Assembly: GCA_016791475.1 (NCBI GenBank)
Contig: JAEUWI010000045.1
Location: 1-64,000, forward strand
Reading direction: 5' to 3'
DNA: 64,000 nucleotides
Origin: Candidatus Hydrogenedentota bacterium
GTDB lineage: Bacteria; Hydrogenedentota; Hydrogenedentia; Hydrogenedentales; JAEUWI01
The stretch's first letter is position 1. Every line of letters starts with the position of its first letter. Positions 56,980 to 63,596 of the stretch are shown piece by piece. The translations under genes and the position numbers were made by a program. The notes under the pieces were generated by a model. That model searched no databases. It was not told where the DNA came from and saw nothing but the letters and a program-made list of their open reading frames with translations.

Positions 56980-56990
56980 CTGGGGGGAAG

Positions 56991-57163
56991 GACTTAAGGG
57001 ACTTAAGGGACTTAAGGGACTTAAGGGACTTAAGGGACTTAAGGGACTGAAGGGACTTGAGGGACTGAAGCTGAAGGGACCTGAAGGGACTGAAGGGACT
57101 GAAGGGACTTGAGGGACCTGAAGGACCTGAAGGACCTGAAGGACCTGAAGGACCTGAAGGACT
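56991..57163. repeat. Degenerating 9-bp tandem array (GACTTAAGG to GACCTGAAG)
   Basis: About 19 units of a 9-bp period. The first block is GACTTAAGG, the middle mixes GACTGAAGG and GACTTGAGG, and the last block is GACCTGAAG. One interruption (near 57068) shifts the phase. Both flanking genes end toward the array (plus strand stop at 56979, minus strand stop at 57276). Confidence 0.93.
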
Positions 57164-57275: not shown

Positions 57276-58943
57276 TCAGTGCTCCACGCGATCCGGTCTG
57301 GTGTATTGCTGCATGATCATGCCGCCGGTGATATTGGCGACGTTGTTGAAGCCGTGCTGTTTCAGGATGCGCGCGCCGACGTGGGCGCGGAGTCCGGACT
57401 GGCAGATGACGGCGGTGGGTTGGGCGGGATCGAGGCTGGCGAGTCGGTCGCGCAGTTCCTCCACGGGGATGTGGATGGCGCCGGGCAGTCGCATCTGGGC
57501 GAACTCGGCGGCGGTGCGGACGTCCACGATCTGGAGCCCCTCAAGTTCCACTTTCGGCGAGGCAATGGACGTGGCGGCGTCGAGGTGATTTGCGGCGACG
57601 AAGGCGGCCATGTGGATGGGGTCTTTCGCGCTGCCGAAGGGCGGGGCGTAGCATAGGTCGACCGAGGCCAGGTCGAAGACGGTAGCTCCAAACTGCATGG
57701 CGGTGGCGATCACGTCGATGCGCTTGTCTACCCCATCGCCCCCCACGGCCTGTGCGCCCAGAACTTTGCCGCTGGCGGGATCGAAAATCAGCTTGAGGAG
57801 CATGCGCTGGGCGCCGGGATAGTAGCCGGCGTGGTTTCCGGCGGAGACGGTGACGGCGAGGGCATCGCGCTGGAGGCGCGCGGCGAGCTTTTCGCTGAGG
57901 CCCGTGGAGGCTGCAACGCAATCGAAAACGCGCACGATGGCGGAACCGAGAACGGCGCCCATGGGTCGCGCGTGGCCCGTGGCGGCGTGCTCTCCCGCGA
58001 TGCGCCCGGCGCGGTTGGCTGGTCCCGCCAGGGGAATGCGCATGGCGGTGCCCGCAAAGGTATGAGGATACTCCACGGCATCGCCCGCCGCGTAGATGTC
58101 GGGGTTGCTGGTCTGAGCGAGGTCGTTGATGACAATACCGCCCATGGGGCCGATGGCGAGTCCAGCGACCTTGGCGAGTTCCGTGGACGGACGCACACCC
58201 ATGCCCAGGATCACGACATCGGCCGGAAGCACGACACCGTTGTCCAGGACCACCGCGCTGACCGAATCGCCTTCGGTTTCAAAGCCTTTGAGTCCTGCGC
58301 CGGTGTGCACGCCTACGTCGTGCTTGCGCAGTTCCTCCTCCACGATGGCGGCCATTTCGGGGTCGAGGGGTGCGAGCACCTGTGGCGCGAGCTCCACCAC
58401 GGAGACCTCCATGCCAAGCTGGTGAAACTGCTCCACCATTTCGAGGCCGATGAAACCGGCCCCCACCACGACAGCCCGCTTCGGGGCGCGCTGTTCGAGG
58501 AAGGCCTTGATGGCATCGGTATCTTCCACATTGCGCAGGGCAAAGACGTTGGAAGCGCGCGCGCCGGGGATGTCCGGCACGATGGGGGCGGCGCCGGGCG
58601 CGAGGATGAGCTTGTCGTAGGACAGGGTGAAGCGCTCGCCGGTGGCGTGGTTTGTGCCTTCCACCCGCTTTTCCAGGGGAATGATCCGCGTGACTTCGTG
58701 GCGCAACTTTACGTTCACACGGAAGCGCTGCTCGAAGAGGGACGGTTTGGCGACGAGGAGTTTCTCCCGGTCTTTGATGTCGCCGCCGAGATAATAGGGC
58801 AGTCCGCAATTGGCAAAGGAAACGTAGCCGTCTTTTTCGAGGAGGGTGATCTCCGCCGATTCATTGCAGCGGCGCGCGCGGGTGGCCGCACTGGCTCCGC
58901 CGGCAACGCCGCCGATGATGAGAATTTTTGTGGGCTGGTTCAT
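57276..58943 (-). CDS. CoA-disulfide reductase with C-terminal rhodanese domain
   Basis: A 555-residue FAD/NAD(P)-dependent oxidoreductase. FAD loop: IIGGVAGGASAATRAR (residues 9-24). Redox cysteine: C46 in SFANCGLPYY, typical of CoADR/NADH oxidase proteins. NAD loop: VVGAGFIGLEM. FAD motif 2: NPDIYAAGDAVE. The rhodanese domain (from about 455) has its catalytic C514 in VICQSGLRAHVG. Such fusions (CoADR-Rhd, Npsr) reduce CoA persulfide or polysulfide. AAGGAG lies before the ATG. Probably links sulfane sulfur to CoA redox state. Confidence 0.92.
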   Translation of the reverse strand: MNQPTKILIIGGVAGGASAATRARRCNESAEITLLEKDGYVSFANCGLPYYLGGDIKDREKLLVAKPSLFEQRFRVNVKLRHEVTRIIPLEKRVEGTNHATGERFTLSYDKLILAPGAAPIVPDIPGARASNVFALRNVEDTDAIKAFLEQRAPKRAVVVGAGFIGLEMVEQFHQLGMEVSVVELAPQVLAPLDPEMAAIVEEELRKHDVGVHTGAGLKGFETEGDSVSAVVLDNGVVLPADVVILGMGVRPSTELAKVAGLAIGPMGGIVINDLAQTSNPDIYAAGDAVEYPHTFAGTAMRIPLAGPANRAGRIAGEHAATGHARPMGAVLGSAIVRVFDCVAASTGLSEKLAARLQRDALAVTVSAGNHAGYYPGAQRMLLKLIFDPASGKVLGAQAVGGDGVDKRIDVIATAMQFGATVFDLASVDLCYAPPFGSAKDPIHMAAFVAANHLDAATSIASPKVELEGLQIVDVRTAAEFAQMRLPGAIHIPVEELRDRLASLDPAQPTAVICQSGLRAHVGARILKQHGFNNVANITGGMIMQQYTRPDRVEH

Positions 58944-59542: not shown

Positions 59543-60684
59543 TCACCGATATCCTCCAGATCGATCAGGGCTGGAGCGCCGAGCAGCGCCTTGCGGCGGA
59601 GCAGGTCCGCCGCTTCGTGGATGAGCGGGTGCTGCCGTGTATCGGCGCGCATCACCAGAGCGAGACCTTTCCCGAGGAACTGGTGGCGCCGCTGCGGGGC
59701 CTTGGGATTCTGGAGGCCGTGGCCGATGACAGCATCGACCCGATCACCTATGGGCTCATCAGCCGCGAGCTGGAGCGGGGCAGTTCGGCGCTGCGGAGTA
59801 TTTTGAGCGTACAGGGATCGCTGGTCATTGGCGCGATCCAGCAGTTCGGATCGCTGGAGCAGAAGGAGCGCTGGCTCGGCCCGCTGGGCCAGCTGGAGGC
59901 CTGGGGCTGCTTCGGCCTTACGGAGCCGGACTACGGCAGCAATCCGGCGGCGATGCAGACCCGCGCGGAACGCTGCCCCGGCGGCTACCGCCTCAACGGC
60001 GCAAAATGCTGGATCACGAGTGGCGTCCGCGCGGACGTGGCCGTAATCTGGGCCAAGCGCGAGGGGCAAGTCTGTGGCTTTCTCGTGGAAACGGACCGCC
60101 CCGGCTTCAACGCCTCGCTCATGAAGGGCAAGTGGAGCTTTCGCAGCAGCGAGACGGCGCAACTCCACCTCGACAACGTGGAAGTGCCCGAGAGCGCCAT
60201 GCTTCCCGGTGCGAACAGCCTCGGCGCGGCACTCAAGTGCCTGGCCCGGGCGCGCTACTCCATCGCGTGGGGCGTCTGCGGCGCGGCCCAGGCCTGCCTG
60301 GAGGAAACCCTCGACTACGTCAAGACGCGCATCCAGTTCAGCGGCCAGCCCCTCGCCAGTCACCAGCTCATCCAGTACAAACTCGCCTGGATGTGTGCCG
60401 AACTCGCGGGGATGCTGCTCATTGCGAAGCAACTGGGCGAACTAAAGACGGCCAACACCCTCGACCCCGCGCAAATCTCGCTGGCGAAGATGAACAACTG
60501 TCGCAAGGCCCTCGAGATCGCCCGCACGTGCCGGGAACTCCTCGGCGCGAATGGCATCCACGATGAGTACCACATCGGGCGGCGGATGGTGGATCTGGAG
60601 ACGGTGTTGACCTATGAAGGCACGGAGCATATTCATGCGCTGACGATTGGGGCGGCGATTACGGGGACTAAGGCCTTTGGGTGA
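59539..60684 (+). CDS. Acyl-CoA dehydrogenase (glutaryl-CoA dehydrogenase-like)
   Basis: A 381-residue flavoenzyme. Recognisable parts are the ERGSSALRSILSVQGSLV, WGCFGLTEPDYGSNPAAMQT (FAD/substrate) and KCWITSGVRADVAVI segments. The catalytic base is E360 in TYEGTEHIHALTIGAAITG. The TYEGT...HAL..G.AITG..AF ending is the pattern of the glutaryl-CoA dehydrogenase group. It overlaps sixA by 4 bp. The last 93 bp, including the catalytic Glu codon, are duplicated at 62059-62151 beyond the kinase/Thg1-like cassette. It is not known whether this end is original or brought in with the cassette. Confidence 0.9.
   Translation: MITDILQIDQGWSAEQRLAAEQVRRFVDERVLPCIGAHHQSETFPEELVAPLRGLGILEAVADDSIDPITYGLISRELERGSSALRSILSVQGSLVIGAIQQFGSLEQKERWLGPLGQLEAWGCFGLTEPDYGSNPAAMQTRAERCPGGYRLNGAKCWITSGVRADVAVIWAKREGQVCGFLVETDRPGFNASLMKGKWSFRSSETAQLHLDNVEVPESAMLPGANSLGAALKCLARARYSIAWGVCGAAQACLEETLDYVKTRIQFSGQPLASHQLIQYKLAWMCAELAGMLLIAKQLGELKTANTLDPAQISLAKMNNCRKALEIARTCRELLGANGIHDEYHIGRRMVDLETVLTYEGTEHIHALTIGAAITGTKAFG
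60592..60684 (+). repeat. Left copy of a 93-bp direct repeat flanking the cassette
   Basis: This is the functional 3' end of the acyl-CoA dehydrogenase gene. It aligns without gaps to 62059-62151 with 84 of 93 positions identical. Eight of the nine differences are silent third-position changes and one changes Thr to Ile. Similarity starts abruptly at GATCTGGAG and fades about 6 nt past the stop codon. Confidence 0.95.
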
Positions 60685-60821
60685 GGGGGGGTTCGGTATG
60701 CATAAGAGCTGGTTACGGACGTTCGTGCCGTGCAATTAGCTTGAATACCTACGACGTTACTGGCCGAAGTAAGACGATTGTCAAAAGCTCGCTTTAGAAG
60801 AGTCAAACAAGGATGTGGGCG

Positions 60822-61271
60822 ATGCAGTGCATCATTTTCATTGGGGCGCAGGCCACCGGGAAATCAACCATGTTTCGAAGCCATTTCGCGCGCACCCATG
60901 TACATATAAGCTTGGACGTTCTAAGAACTCGCCACCGGGAACAGCGCTTTTTCGAGATCTGTTTGGAGACACGGCAACCCTTTGTCGTCGACAATACGAA
61001 CCCTCGTCGCACAGATCGCTCGCGATACATCATCCCGGCCCGCGAACACAGCTTTACGGTGATCGGATACTACTTCCAATCGAGGATCGAGGACATGTTG
61101 GAGCGCAACGCCGCGCGAGCAACTGGGGAGCGAATTCCGGATAAGGGTCTTCGGGGCACCCTCGCGGCACTCGAGCTACCTTCGCTAACTGAAGGCTTCG
61201 ATCAACTCTACTACGTTGAATGGGACAAGCAGAAAGACTACCGCATTTCGGGGTGGAACGATGAAGTTTAG
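60822..61271 (+). CDS. Pnkp-like 5'-polynucleotide kinase
   Basis: A 149-residue P-loop kinase. Walker A is FIGAQATGKST (residues 6-16). The HISLDVLR segment places D32 where the general base of T4 Pnk and human PNKP lies. VVDNTNPRRTDRSRYI (56-70) matches the DNTNP signature of PNKP kinase domains, and LERNAAR holds the lid arginine. The family moves the gamma-phosphate of ATP to a 5'-OH end of RNA or DNA. No phosphatase or ligase domain is fused. The start at 60822 has AAGGA 8 nt upstream; ATG 60813 is an alternative. The stop overlaps the next gene by 11 bp. Local GC is low compared with neighbours. Confidence 0.85.
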   Translation: MQCIIFIGAQATGKSTMFRSHFARTHVHISLDVLRTRHREQRFFEICLETRQPFVVDNTNPRRTDRSRYIIPAREHSFTVIGYYFQSRIEDMLERNAARATGERIPDKGLRGTLAALELPSLTEGFDQLYYVEWDKQKDYRISGWNDEV

Positions 61272-62034
61272 TGAACTTGATGCCAAGATTCGAGTGTTTG
61301 AAACGGACTACGATCAGTTTGTTCCGCCCGGTGTGCATATGGTAGCACGACTGGACGGCCGAAACTTCAGTCGATTGACGAAGGAACTGCATGACTTTGA
61401 ACACCCTTTCGACGCCCGATTCCGCGACTACATGCTATTGACGACCGAGTTTCTGATGAATTGCGGTGGGCGTGTCCTTTACGGCTACACGCAGAGTGAC
61501 GAGATATCATTACTTTTTCATCCAGATGACGAATGCTTCGGACGGAAAGTGCGCAAAATCATTAGTATCTTGTCAGGCGAGGCCAGCGCCCGCTTCTCTT
61601 CTCTGCTGCAAGACCACGCCGTTTTTGACTGCCGGGTCAGCCAGTTGCCTTCGAAACAAAGCGTAATCGACTATTTCCGATGGCGCGCCGAGGATGCACA
61701 CCGCAATTCCCTTCAAGCGCATTGCTACTGGGGGTTACGCGAACGTGGTCTCATCGCGACTGCGGCGGATAAGCGACTCAAGGGCCTGCGCGAGCCTGAA
61801 AAGCGGTCGTTGTTTCGTGAATTGAAAAGCTTCGATTTTGACGCGTTGCCTGGATGGCAACGGCGGGGCTCAGGTTTGCGTTGGGAAGCGTATACCAAAA
61901 CATCACAAGACCCTAGAACCGGGGAAAGCGTGGACGCCAGTCGTTGGCGCCTAGTAAGGAACCTCGAACTTCCTGAAAACTCAGCTTACAGCGACTACCT
62001 GATGACGCTATTGGAAGGCGCTGTCGAAATATGA
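61261..62034 (+). CDS. Thg1-like protein: 3'-5' RNA polymerase/tRNA repair enzyme
   Basis: A 257-residue member of the tRNA(His) guanylyltransferase superfamily. The metal-binding aspartates are D32 in ARLDGRNFSRLT and D80 in GYTQSDEISLLF. The SGEASARFSS helix and the YFRWRAEDAHRNSLQAHCYWGLRERG segment fit bacterial Thg1-like proteins (TLPs) rather than eukaryotic Thg1, whose HINNLYN motif is absent. TLPs add nucleotides to 5'-truncated tRNAs in the 3'-5' direction using the complementary strand as template. They activate a 5'-monophosphate end, which is what the upstream kinase could supply. The 11-bp overlap indicates a coupled operon. GC is low and codon use differs from neighbours. Confidence 0.9.
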   Translation: MKFSELDAKIRVFETDYDQFVPPGVHMVARLDGRNFSRLTKELHDFEHPFDARFRDYMLLTTEFLMNCGGRVLYGYTQSDEISLLFHPDDECFGRKVRKIISILSGEASARFSSLLQDHAVFDCRVSQLPSKQSVIDYFRWRAEDAHRNSLQAHCYWGLRERGLIATAADKRLKGLREPEKRSLFRELKSFDFDALPGWQRRGSGLRWEAYTKTSQDPRTGESVDASRWRLVRNLELPENSAYSDYLMTLLEGAVEI

Positions 62035-62058
62035 TGGAACTCAAGTCGGCAAACCGCA

Positions 62059-62151
62059 GATCTGGAGACCGTGTTGACCTATGAGGGGACGGAGCACATC
62101 CATGCGCTGACAATTGGGGCCGCGATTACGGGGATTAAGGCGTTTGGGTGA
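62059..62151 (+). pseudogene. Right copy of the acyl-CoA dehydrogenase 3' end
   Basis: Encodes LETVLTYEGTEHIHALTIG and then AAITGIKAFG and a TGA stop, in frame but without a start or the rest of the gene. It is 90% identical to the left copy. Its Ile in AITGI is closer to the glutaryl-CoA dehydrogenase consensus than the Thr of the intact gene. It may be the original chromosomal 3' end displaced by the cassette, or a remnant of a second dehydrogenase gene. Confidence 0.9.
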
Positions 62152-62396
62152 GAGGGAAGTCACCCAATCACAGCCGGGACGACTGTGCCAGATTCTCGCG
62201 TCGATATTGCTTGATCTTGCGCCAAACCCCATCTGATTCTTGAATTCTCGACGCGGGAGGTTTATCGTAGATCCGGTAGTCCTTTCGGGGGACTGCATGG
62301 GTACGCTTCGCGTGCTTGCGGCCAGGGCTATCTCCATCGGCGAACGGGTGAACCGTGTCCGCCGATACTATCGCCAACCACGTGGGAGAGCACGCC
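62152..62396. other. Intergenic stretch upstream of trpB, possible coding remnant on the minus strand
   Basis: No intact gene is seen. The minus-strand frame from about 62320 down to 62168 reads protein-like text (RTHAVPRKDYRIYDKPP, then RIQESDGVWRKIKQY and a stop) without a plausible start, so it may be the tail of a lost gene carried at the edge of the insertion. Confidence in that is low. Confidence 0.35.
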
Positions 62397-63596
62397 ATGA
62401 CCATGCACGCACAGGAAATGCCGGATAAAGAGGGGTTTTTCGGGGAATACGGGGGGCAGTTTGTTCCGCCGGAATTGAAGCGGGTCATGGATGAGATCAA
62501 TGACGCGTATGACGCGGTGACGGCAACGGTGGCATTTCAGGAGGAGCTCGCGGATCTGTATGCGGATTATGTGGGTCGACCGAGTCCGCTTTATTTTGCG
62601 CGGCGCTTGACGGACAAGATCGGGGGGGCGCGGATCTTTCTGAAGCGGGAGGATCTGAACCACACGGGCGCACACAAGATTAACCACTGTCTGGGCGAGG
62701 CCCTGCTGGCGAAGCACATGGGCAAGACGAAGGTGCTGGCGGAGACGGGCGCGGGGCAGCATGGGGTGGCGCTGGCGACGGCGTGCGCGCTGGTGGGGAT
62801 TCCGTGTGAGATTCACATGGGCGAGATCGACATTGCGAAGGAGCACCCGAACGTCACGAAGATGAAGATCCTGGGCTGTACGCTGGTGCCGGTGACGCGG
62901 GGCACGCGGACGCTGAAGGATGCGGTGGACAGCGCTTTTGACGAGTATTTGAAGGATCCGGAGCACTTCTTTTATGCGATTGGCTCTGTGGTGGGCCCCC
63001 ACCCCTTCCCGAAGATGGTGCGGGATTTTCAGAGCATCGTGGGCCGGGAAGCGCGCACGCAGTTTCTGTCGCGTGAGCATTGCCTGCCGGATTATGTGAT
63101 GGCGTGCGTGGGCGGCGGCTCGAACGCCATCGGGCTGTTCACGGCGTTTCTCGATGACGCTTCGGTCGCGATGATCGGCGTGGAGCCGGCGGGGCGTGGC
63201 CTGGAGACGCCCGATCATGCGGCGACGCTGACGAAGGGGAGCAAGGGGGTGCTTCATGGTTTCCGCTGCTACAACCTGCAGGACGAAGCGGGCGAGCCGC
63301 TGCCGGTGTATTCCATTGCGTCGGGTCTCGATTATCCGGGCACGGGTCCGCAGCACTGTCACCTCAAGGATATTGGACGGGCGGAATATGTGGCGGTGGA
63401 CGATGCGGCCTGTCTGGACGCCTTCATGACGCTGTCGCGTCTGGAGGGGATCATCCCCGCTCTGGAGAGTGCCCATGCGGTGGCCTATGCGATGCAACTG
63501 GCCGCTACGCTGCCCCGGGAAAAATCGATCCTGATCAATCTTTCCGGACGTGGCGACAAGGACGCGGATTTCGTGGCGGATCACCTGGGTTTGTAG
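62397..63596 (+). CDS. trpB: Tryptophan synthase beta chain
   Basis: A 399-residue TrpB that condenses indole with serine to tryptophan. The PLP lysine is K94 in [16 protein letters not shown], followed by [14 protein letters not shown], the [17 protein letters not shown] region, the phosphate-binding GGGSNAIG loop and [10 protein letters not shown] near the end. The start at 62397 has GGGAGAG about 7 nt upstream. trpA and other trp genes are not adjacent: the next gene is a convergent sialidase-like gene, so trpB stands apart from an operon here. Confidence 0.95.

What the first reader, a model, noticed from the sequence alone, without database searches (positions are those of the whole stretch)
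60822..62034. Two-gene RNA 5'-end repair module: Pnkp-like kinase coupled to a Thg1-like 3'-5' polymerase
Seen: a P-loop kinase with DNTNP and D32, overlapping by 11 bp a TLP with both catalytic aspartates. Known: TLPs extend 5'-truncated tRNAs templated by the opposite strand and need to activate a 5'-phosphate; ribonuclease toxins and anticodon nucleases leave 5'-OH ends. Inference: the kinase phosphorylates the broken 5' end, the TLP rebuilds missing nucleotides, and a host or element ligase seals, giving a minimal repair pathway against tRNA-cutting toxins such as VapC. No ligase lies in the cassette.
Basis: partly seen in the sequence, partly recalled or inferred. Interest (0 to 1): 0.87.

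Follow-up and report, generated by a model that had tools for sequence, protein, structure and literature searches.

The report
Kinase-polymerase pair repairing RNA 5' ends
Two overlapping genes encode an enzyme that phosphorylates broken RNA 5' ends and a rare backwards-working polymerase that rebuilds them; the pairing was published in 2010, but this survey finds it in many bacterial phyla with a nearly fixed 11-base overlap, often inside RNA-repair operons and in some Bacteroidota inside the histidine operon.

Summary
An intact PNK-type P-loop kinase gene (60822-61271) overlaps by exactly 11 bp an intact Thg1-like 3'-5' polymerase (TLP) gene (61261-62034). The idea is not new: Anantharaman, Iyer and Aravind (2010) reported a polynucleotide kinase as the most persistent neighbour of bacterial Thg1 and proposed the kinase-then-polymerase logic. 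This is a new member of a known kind. New here: (1) of the 80 closest database loci, 68 have the kinase directly upstream, with an 11-bp overlap in 51, across at least eight named phyla; (2) 14 of the 80 also carry Hen1 and 11 the Pnkp ligase; (3) in nine Hymenobacter-group loci and one Dysgonomonas the pair lies inside the his operon, and all five loci examined have a His-rich leader upstream of hisG; (4) in the window's phylum the pair occurs in 1 of 68 genomes and tRNA-His is the G1-U72/A73 type that needs no G-1, so G-1 addition is an unlikely job here; (5) a 98-bp, 90% repeat of the upstream gene's 3' end flanks the lower-GC cassette, suggesting recent arrival.

The parts
60822..61271 (+). 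PNK-type P-loop kinase gene (ORF open from 60813; family start at 60822)
   Evidence: Pfam AAA_33 1.1e-14; PNKP kinase match; model TM 0.84-0.85 to PNKP; homologues start at this Met
61261..62034 (+). Thg1-like protein (TLP), 3'-5' RNA polymerase gene
   Evidence: Pfam Thg1 4.3e-30 and Thg1C 5.7e-10; catalytic DG and SDE motifs intact; 50-60% identical to TLPs of many phyla
61261..61271 (+). 11-bp overlap of the two genes, the same length in 51 of 68 adjacent pairs elsewhere
60592..60689 (+). 3' end of the acyl-CoA dehydrogenase gene, upstream copy of the 98-bp direct repeat
   Evidence: only two copies in the genome
62059..62156 (+). second, detached copy of the acyl-CoA dehydrogenase 3' end (90% identical), right flank of the cassette
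   Evidence: relatives G001, G002, G005 have one copy and no cassette
60690..62058 (+). the 1.37-kb cassette between the repeats; GC 0.47-0.54 against 0.65 in the upstream gene

Best explanation
A horizontally acquired two-enzyme RNA 5'-end repair cassette. The kinase transfers a phosphate from NTP to the 5'-OH of an RNA that lost its first nucleotides. The TLP then activates that 5'-phosphate with ATP or GTP and adds the missing nucleotides in the 3'-5' direction, copying the opposite strand of the acceptor stem. If the damage is a short 5' truncation of a tRNA, this restores the molecule without a ligase. Shown here: intact genes, family and fold of the kinase, family of the TLP, conserved coupling, recurrent company of RNA-repair genes, no need for G-1 in this host. 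Inferred: the enzymatic activities, tRNA as the substrate, and the source of the damage.
For: Kinase: PNK fold and conserved active site. TLP: all catalytic residues; bacterial TLPs repair 5'-truncated tRNAs in vitro, assayed on 5'-phosphorylated tRNA (PMC3701042). Coupling: 68 of 80 loci in at least eight named phyla, 11-bp overlap in 51; kinase and TLP tree distances correlate (Spearman 0.58, permutation maximum 0.37). Company: Hen1 14, Pnkp 11, RlaP about 5, RNA ligase 2 of 80. In two Cytophagales loci without the stand-alone kinase the TLP sits between RlaP and Hen1. Not G-1: every tRNA-His gene read from the phylum (own genome and 29 relatives) shows G1-U72/A73, while 67 of 68 genomes lack TLP; such tRNA-His is charged on A73, U72 and the anticodon in Caulobacter (PMC9976931).
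Against: No activity has been measured. 11 of 80 loci have TLP without a detected kinase, two of them with a kinase remnant (L054, L107), so the TLP can persist alone. The window copies sit on long branches. No toxin or damage source is linked to the cassette here, and PADLOC gives no match.
Confidence: 0.62

Rival explanations
1. Ligase-coupled repair: the pair prepares broken RNAs (anticodon-loop breaks) for sealing by Pnkp/Hen1 or Rnl ligases; in this genome the partner is missing or unrecognised.
For: Hen1-kinase-TLP-Pnkp operons in cyanobacteria and planctomycetes; RNA ligase next to TLP in L080 and L106; the Pnkp1-Rnl-Hen1 complex repairs ribotoxin-cleaved RNA in vitro (PMC4411300 abstract).
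Against: The own genome has no PF09414 and no PNKP_ligase, only RtcB; Pnkp brings its own kinase, so a second kinase suggests a separate step.
Confidence: 0.17
2. The TLP makes or restores G-1 on tRNA-His, and the kinase supplies its 5'-phosphate.
For: The pair lies inside his operons with His-rich leaders in Bacteroidota; tRNA-His there carries the canonical G-1:C73.
Against: In the window's phylum tRNA-His is G1-U72/A73 and 67 of 68 genomes lack TLP; in the Bacteroidota carriers checked G-1 is already encoded.
Confidence: 0.08
3. The pair installs a 5' adenylyl or guanylyl cap-like end (App/Gpp-RNA) for ligation or signalling rather than polymerising.
For: TLP chemistry passes through an NMP-activated 5' end; RNA ligation through 5' App was proposed in PMC2904730.
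Against: The nucleotidyl-transfer (polymerase) residues are as conserved as the rest; no decapping or ligase partner here.
Confidence: 0.06
4. A recently transferred passenger with no present role in this host.
For: 1 of 68 genomes in the phylum, lower GC, flanking repeat, long branches.
Against: Both frames and all active-site residues are intact.
Confidence: 0.07

Closest known systems
Bacterial Thg1-polynucleotide kinase gene neighbourhoods (Anantharaman, Iyer and Aravind 2010, PMC2904730)
   Same: Same two families side by side and the same proposed order: kinase makes the 5'-phosphate, Thg1 extends.
   Different: The passages read do not mention the fixed 11-bp overlap, Hen1, RlaP or the his-operon setting; here the pair stands alone with neither a ligase nor a MACRO gene.
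Bacterial TLPs such as B. thuringiensis TLP (PMC3701042)
   Same: Same family and catalytic residues; repair of 5'-truncated tRNA.
   Different: This TLP belongs to a clade coupled to a kinase gene; it has not been assayed.
Pnkp/Hen1 RNA repair systems (PMC4411300)
   Same: They share the 5'-OH kinase step, and the two systems sit in one operon in part of the genomes.
   Different: No ligase, phosphatase or methyltransferase in the window; nucleotide rebuilding instead of sealing.

Membership tests
Thg1/TLP 3'-5' polymerases | Thg1 catalytic domain and Thg1C domain above curated cut-offs | tested here: met
   104.7 bits (cut-off 29.2) and 39.9 bits (cut-off 26.3)
Thg1/TLP 3'-5' polymerases | Metal-binding carboxylates (D32, D80, E81) in context | tested here: met
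   present and invariant in 81 sequences
Thg1/TLP 3'-5' polymerases | 3'-5' nucleotide addition to RNA | not testable with these tools
   no assay possible
Polynucleotide 5'-OH kinase (PNK type) | P-loop, catalytic Asp and PNK fold | tested here: met
   AAA_33; G16-K17, D35, DNTNP conserved; best PDB folds are PNKP, fungal kinase, Clostridium and T4 PNK
Polynucleotide 5'-OH kinase (PNK type) | activity on 5'-OH RNA | not testable with these tools
   no assay possible
Kinase-TLP repair pair of Anantharaman et al. | adjacent, same-strand, conserved across lineages | tested here: met
   68 of 80 loci in at least eight named phyla
Complete seal-type RNA repair system (Pnkp/Hen1 or Rnl) | a compatible RNA ligase in the genome | tested here: not met
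   no PF09414 and no PNKP_ligase; only RtcB. T4 Rnl1-type PF09511 was not tested
tRNA-His guanylyltransferase (G-1 enzyme) | host tRNA-His needs added G-1 | tested here: not met
   tRNA-His is G1-U72/A73 in the own genome and 29 relatives
Known anti-phage defence system | match to a PADLOC model | tested here: not met
   no match for the pair or three neighbours

The most novel reading that the evidence does not exclude
In Bacteroidota the pair is a tRNA-His repair device wired into histidine attenuation: when tRNA-His loses its 5' end it cannot be charged, the ribosome stalls in the His-rich leader, and the his operon, carrying kinase and TLP, switches on and rebuilds G-1 and the acceptor stem. 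It would be a closed repair loop and an in vivo role for this bacterial TLP clade. The window copy would be a mobile form of the same tool applied to other tRNAs.
Probability: 0.2. Interest if true: 0.82.

Novelty: new member of a known kind. Interest (0 to 1): 0.48.

Why it matters
[quoted passage not shown] A kinase gene tied by an 11-bp overlap to the TLP gene in many phyla, inside Hen1/Pnkp repair operons or his operons with His-rich leaders, points to substrates (5'-OH ends, tRNA-His) and cultured hosts (Hymenobacter, Nostoc, Corallococcus) in which the question of their role can be tested directly.

Tried and rejected
Novel system: rejected, published in 2010. G-1 enzyme for this host: rejected. 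Ligase in the host genome: only RtcB found. Defence-system match: none. Flanking direct repeats as a general mobility signature: tested in the 80 loci; only short weak matches elsewhere, no comparable repeat (the long hit printed there for L106 is an artefact of my script, because that contig starts inside the region). Which repeat copy is ancestral: inconclusive; all three relatives side with the downstream copy at three of ten differing sites, the rest are mixed. Viral relatives: TLPs are common in phages, but only 3 of 80 viral loci have a kinase hit. A degenerate anticodon pattern to find tRNA-His in carriers was too loose; only three Bacteroidota tRNA-His genes were recovered. The Rfam gathering-threshold search of his-operon loci found no described leader family. 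The 2016 Burroughs and Aravind RNA-repair survey is not held, so prior mention of TLP beside Hen1/Pnkp/RlaP cannot be excluded.

Full report
Check of the observation. The kinase frame is open from 60813, but homologues start at the second Met, 60822. It scores as AAA_33 (1.1e-14), its nearest solved relative by sequence is the kinase domain of mammalian PNKP, and an AlphaFold model from 54 sequences (pLDDT 91) matches PNKP at TM 0.84-0.85, then fungal kinases, Clostridium thermocellum Pnkp kinase and T4 PNK. The TLP scores as Thg1 and Thg1C and keeps the catalytic acids. The genes overlap by exactly 11 bp.

Is it conserved? Yes. A scan of one genome per species found at least 453 relatives; the best 80 were fetched. 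In 68 of the 80 the kinase lies directly upstream on the same strand; the overlap is 11 bp in 51, 14 bp in 9 and 4 bp in 6, and two pairs do not overlap (the count of 70 printed includes two plasmid loci). Carriers with the pair include Cyanobacteriota, Planctomycetota, Bacteroidota, Pseudomonadota, Myxococcota, Chloroflexota, Bacillota and Lentisphaerota, plus plasmids of Deinococcus and Embleya. In a separate draw from the bacterial order of Hymenobacter, here called Cytophagales, 27 of 30 TLP loci have the kinase. Tree distances of kinases and TLPs correlate (0.58; permutation maximum 0.37). Eleven of the 80 loci lack a detected kinase; two keep a fragment of its 3' end.

Company. Pfam names for the neighbours and their positions: Hen1 in 14 of 80, Pnkp ligase in 11, RlaP nucleotidyltransferases in 5, RNA ligase with an HD-kinase protein in 2. 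In Scytonematopsis (L065) the order is Hen1, kinase, TLP, Pnkp on one strand. In two Cytophagales loci without the stand-alone kinase, TLP sits between RlaP and Hen1. This ties the pair to RNA repair more directly than the window alone could.

The histidine operon. In four Hymenobacter loci of the first set the order is hisG, hisD, hisC, kinase, TLP, hisB, with frames that look like hisH, hisA and hisF following in L055, L071 and L100; the kinase starts 6-8 bp after hisC in those three (L052 has an extra reading frame between). In Dysgonomonas the pair precedes hisC-hisB. Five further Cytophagales loci show hisC-kinase-TLP-hisB. Upstream of hisG in all five loci examined lies a short frame rich in His codons, and in Dysgonomonas also a strong terminator hairpin before hisG. 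Such leaders are the classical sign of attenuation by charged tRNA-His (own knowledge). No held paper joins Thg1 with histidine biosynthesis and operon.

What it does in this host. In the window's phylum only this genome of 68 has a TLP. Every tRNA-His gene read there, from the own genome and 29 relatives, has G1-U72 and A73 and no G-1:C73 pair. That is the Caulobacter type, charged on A73, U72 and the anticodon (PMC9976931). So G-1 addition is not needed. The genome has RtcB but no PF09414 RNA ligase and no PNKP ligase. RtcB joins 5'-OH to 3'-phosphate ends, so a kinase would work against it (own knowledge). The pathway that fits is ligase-free: phosphorylate a shortened 5' end, then rebuild it from the opposite strand. 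BtTLP does the second step in vitro on 5'-phosphorylated truncated tRNA (PMC3701042). VapC is a poor candidate for the damage, because PIN nucleases leave 5'-phosphates (own knowledge).

How it arrived. The cassette has GC 0.47-0.54 against 0.65 in the preceding gene. It lies between two copies of the last 98 bp of that acyl-CoA dehydrogenase gene, 90% identical, found nowhere else in the genome. Relatives G001, G002 and G005 have the gene with one 3' end and no cassette. This looks like integration at a gene 3' end that left the displaced end downstream, but there is no integrase, other loci show no comparable repeat, and a join made in assembly cannot be excluded without reads.

Known or new. 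The pairing and its logic are in Anantharaman et al. 2010 (PMC2904730). I therefore call this locus a new member of a known kind. The quantitative coupling and the Hen1/Pnkp and his-operon settings are, as far as the held library shows, unreported; the 2016 Burroughs and Aravind survey could not be read.

Noticed in passing
L052, L055, L071, L100, L082 (and L343, L344, L345, L347, L350): Kinase-TLP pair embedded in Bacteroidota his operons; the first five loci have a His-rich leader peptide upstream of hisG (for example KHHHHHGHHSSF in L052), and L082 has a terminator hairpin before hisG.
   Followed up: partly
L236 1501-1577 and L250-L279: tRNA-His of the window's phylum, in every genome read, is the G1-U72/A73 type without G-1:C73, otherwise described from alphaproteobacteria.
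   Followed up: yes
window 62059-62156: Detached 98-bp copy of the acyl-CoA dehydrogenase 3' end, 90% identical to the intact gene's end.
   Followed up: yes
window 62355-63596: A TrpB-like protein, 51% identical to a second TrpB elsewhere in the same genome; its close orthologues in G001 and G002 lie in other surroundings.
   Followed up: partly
window 58757-58912 (+): Sub-threshold Rfam match to Vibrio RNA AS7 (47 bits, gathering 90, E 1e-6), antisense to an oxidoreductase gene; probably reflects that conserved gene.
   Followed up: no
window 56980-57110: Short tandem repeat encoding GLK/KGL runs between genes.
   Followed up: no
L054, L107: Kinase gene reduced to a 3' fragment directly before an intact TLP gene.
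   Followed up: partly
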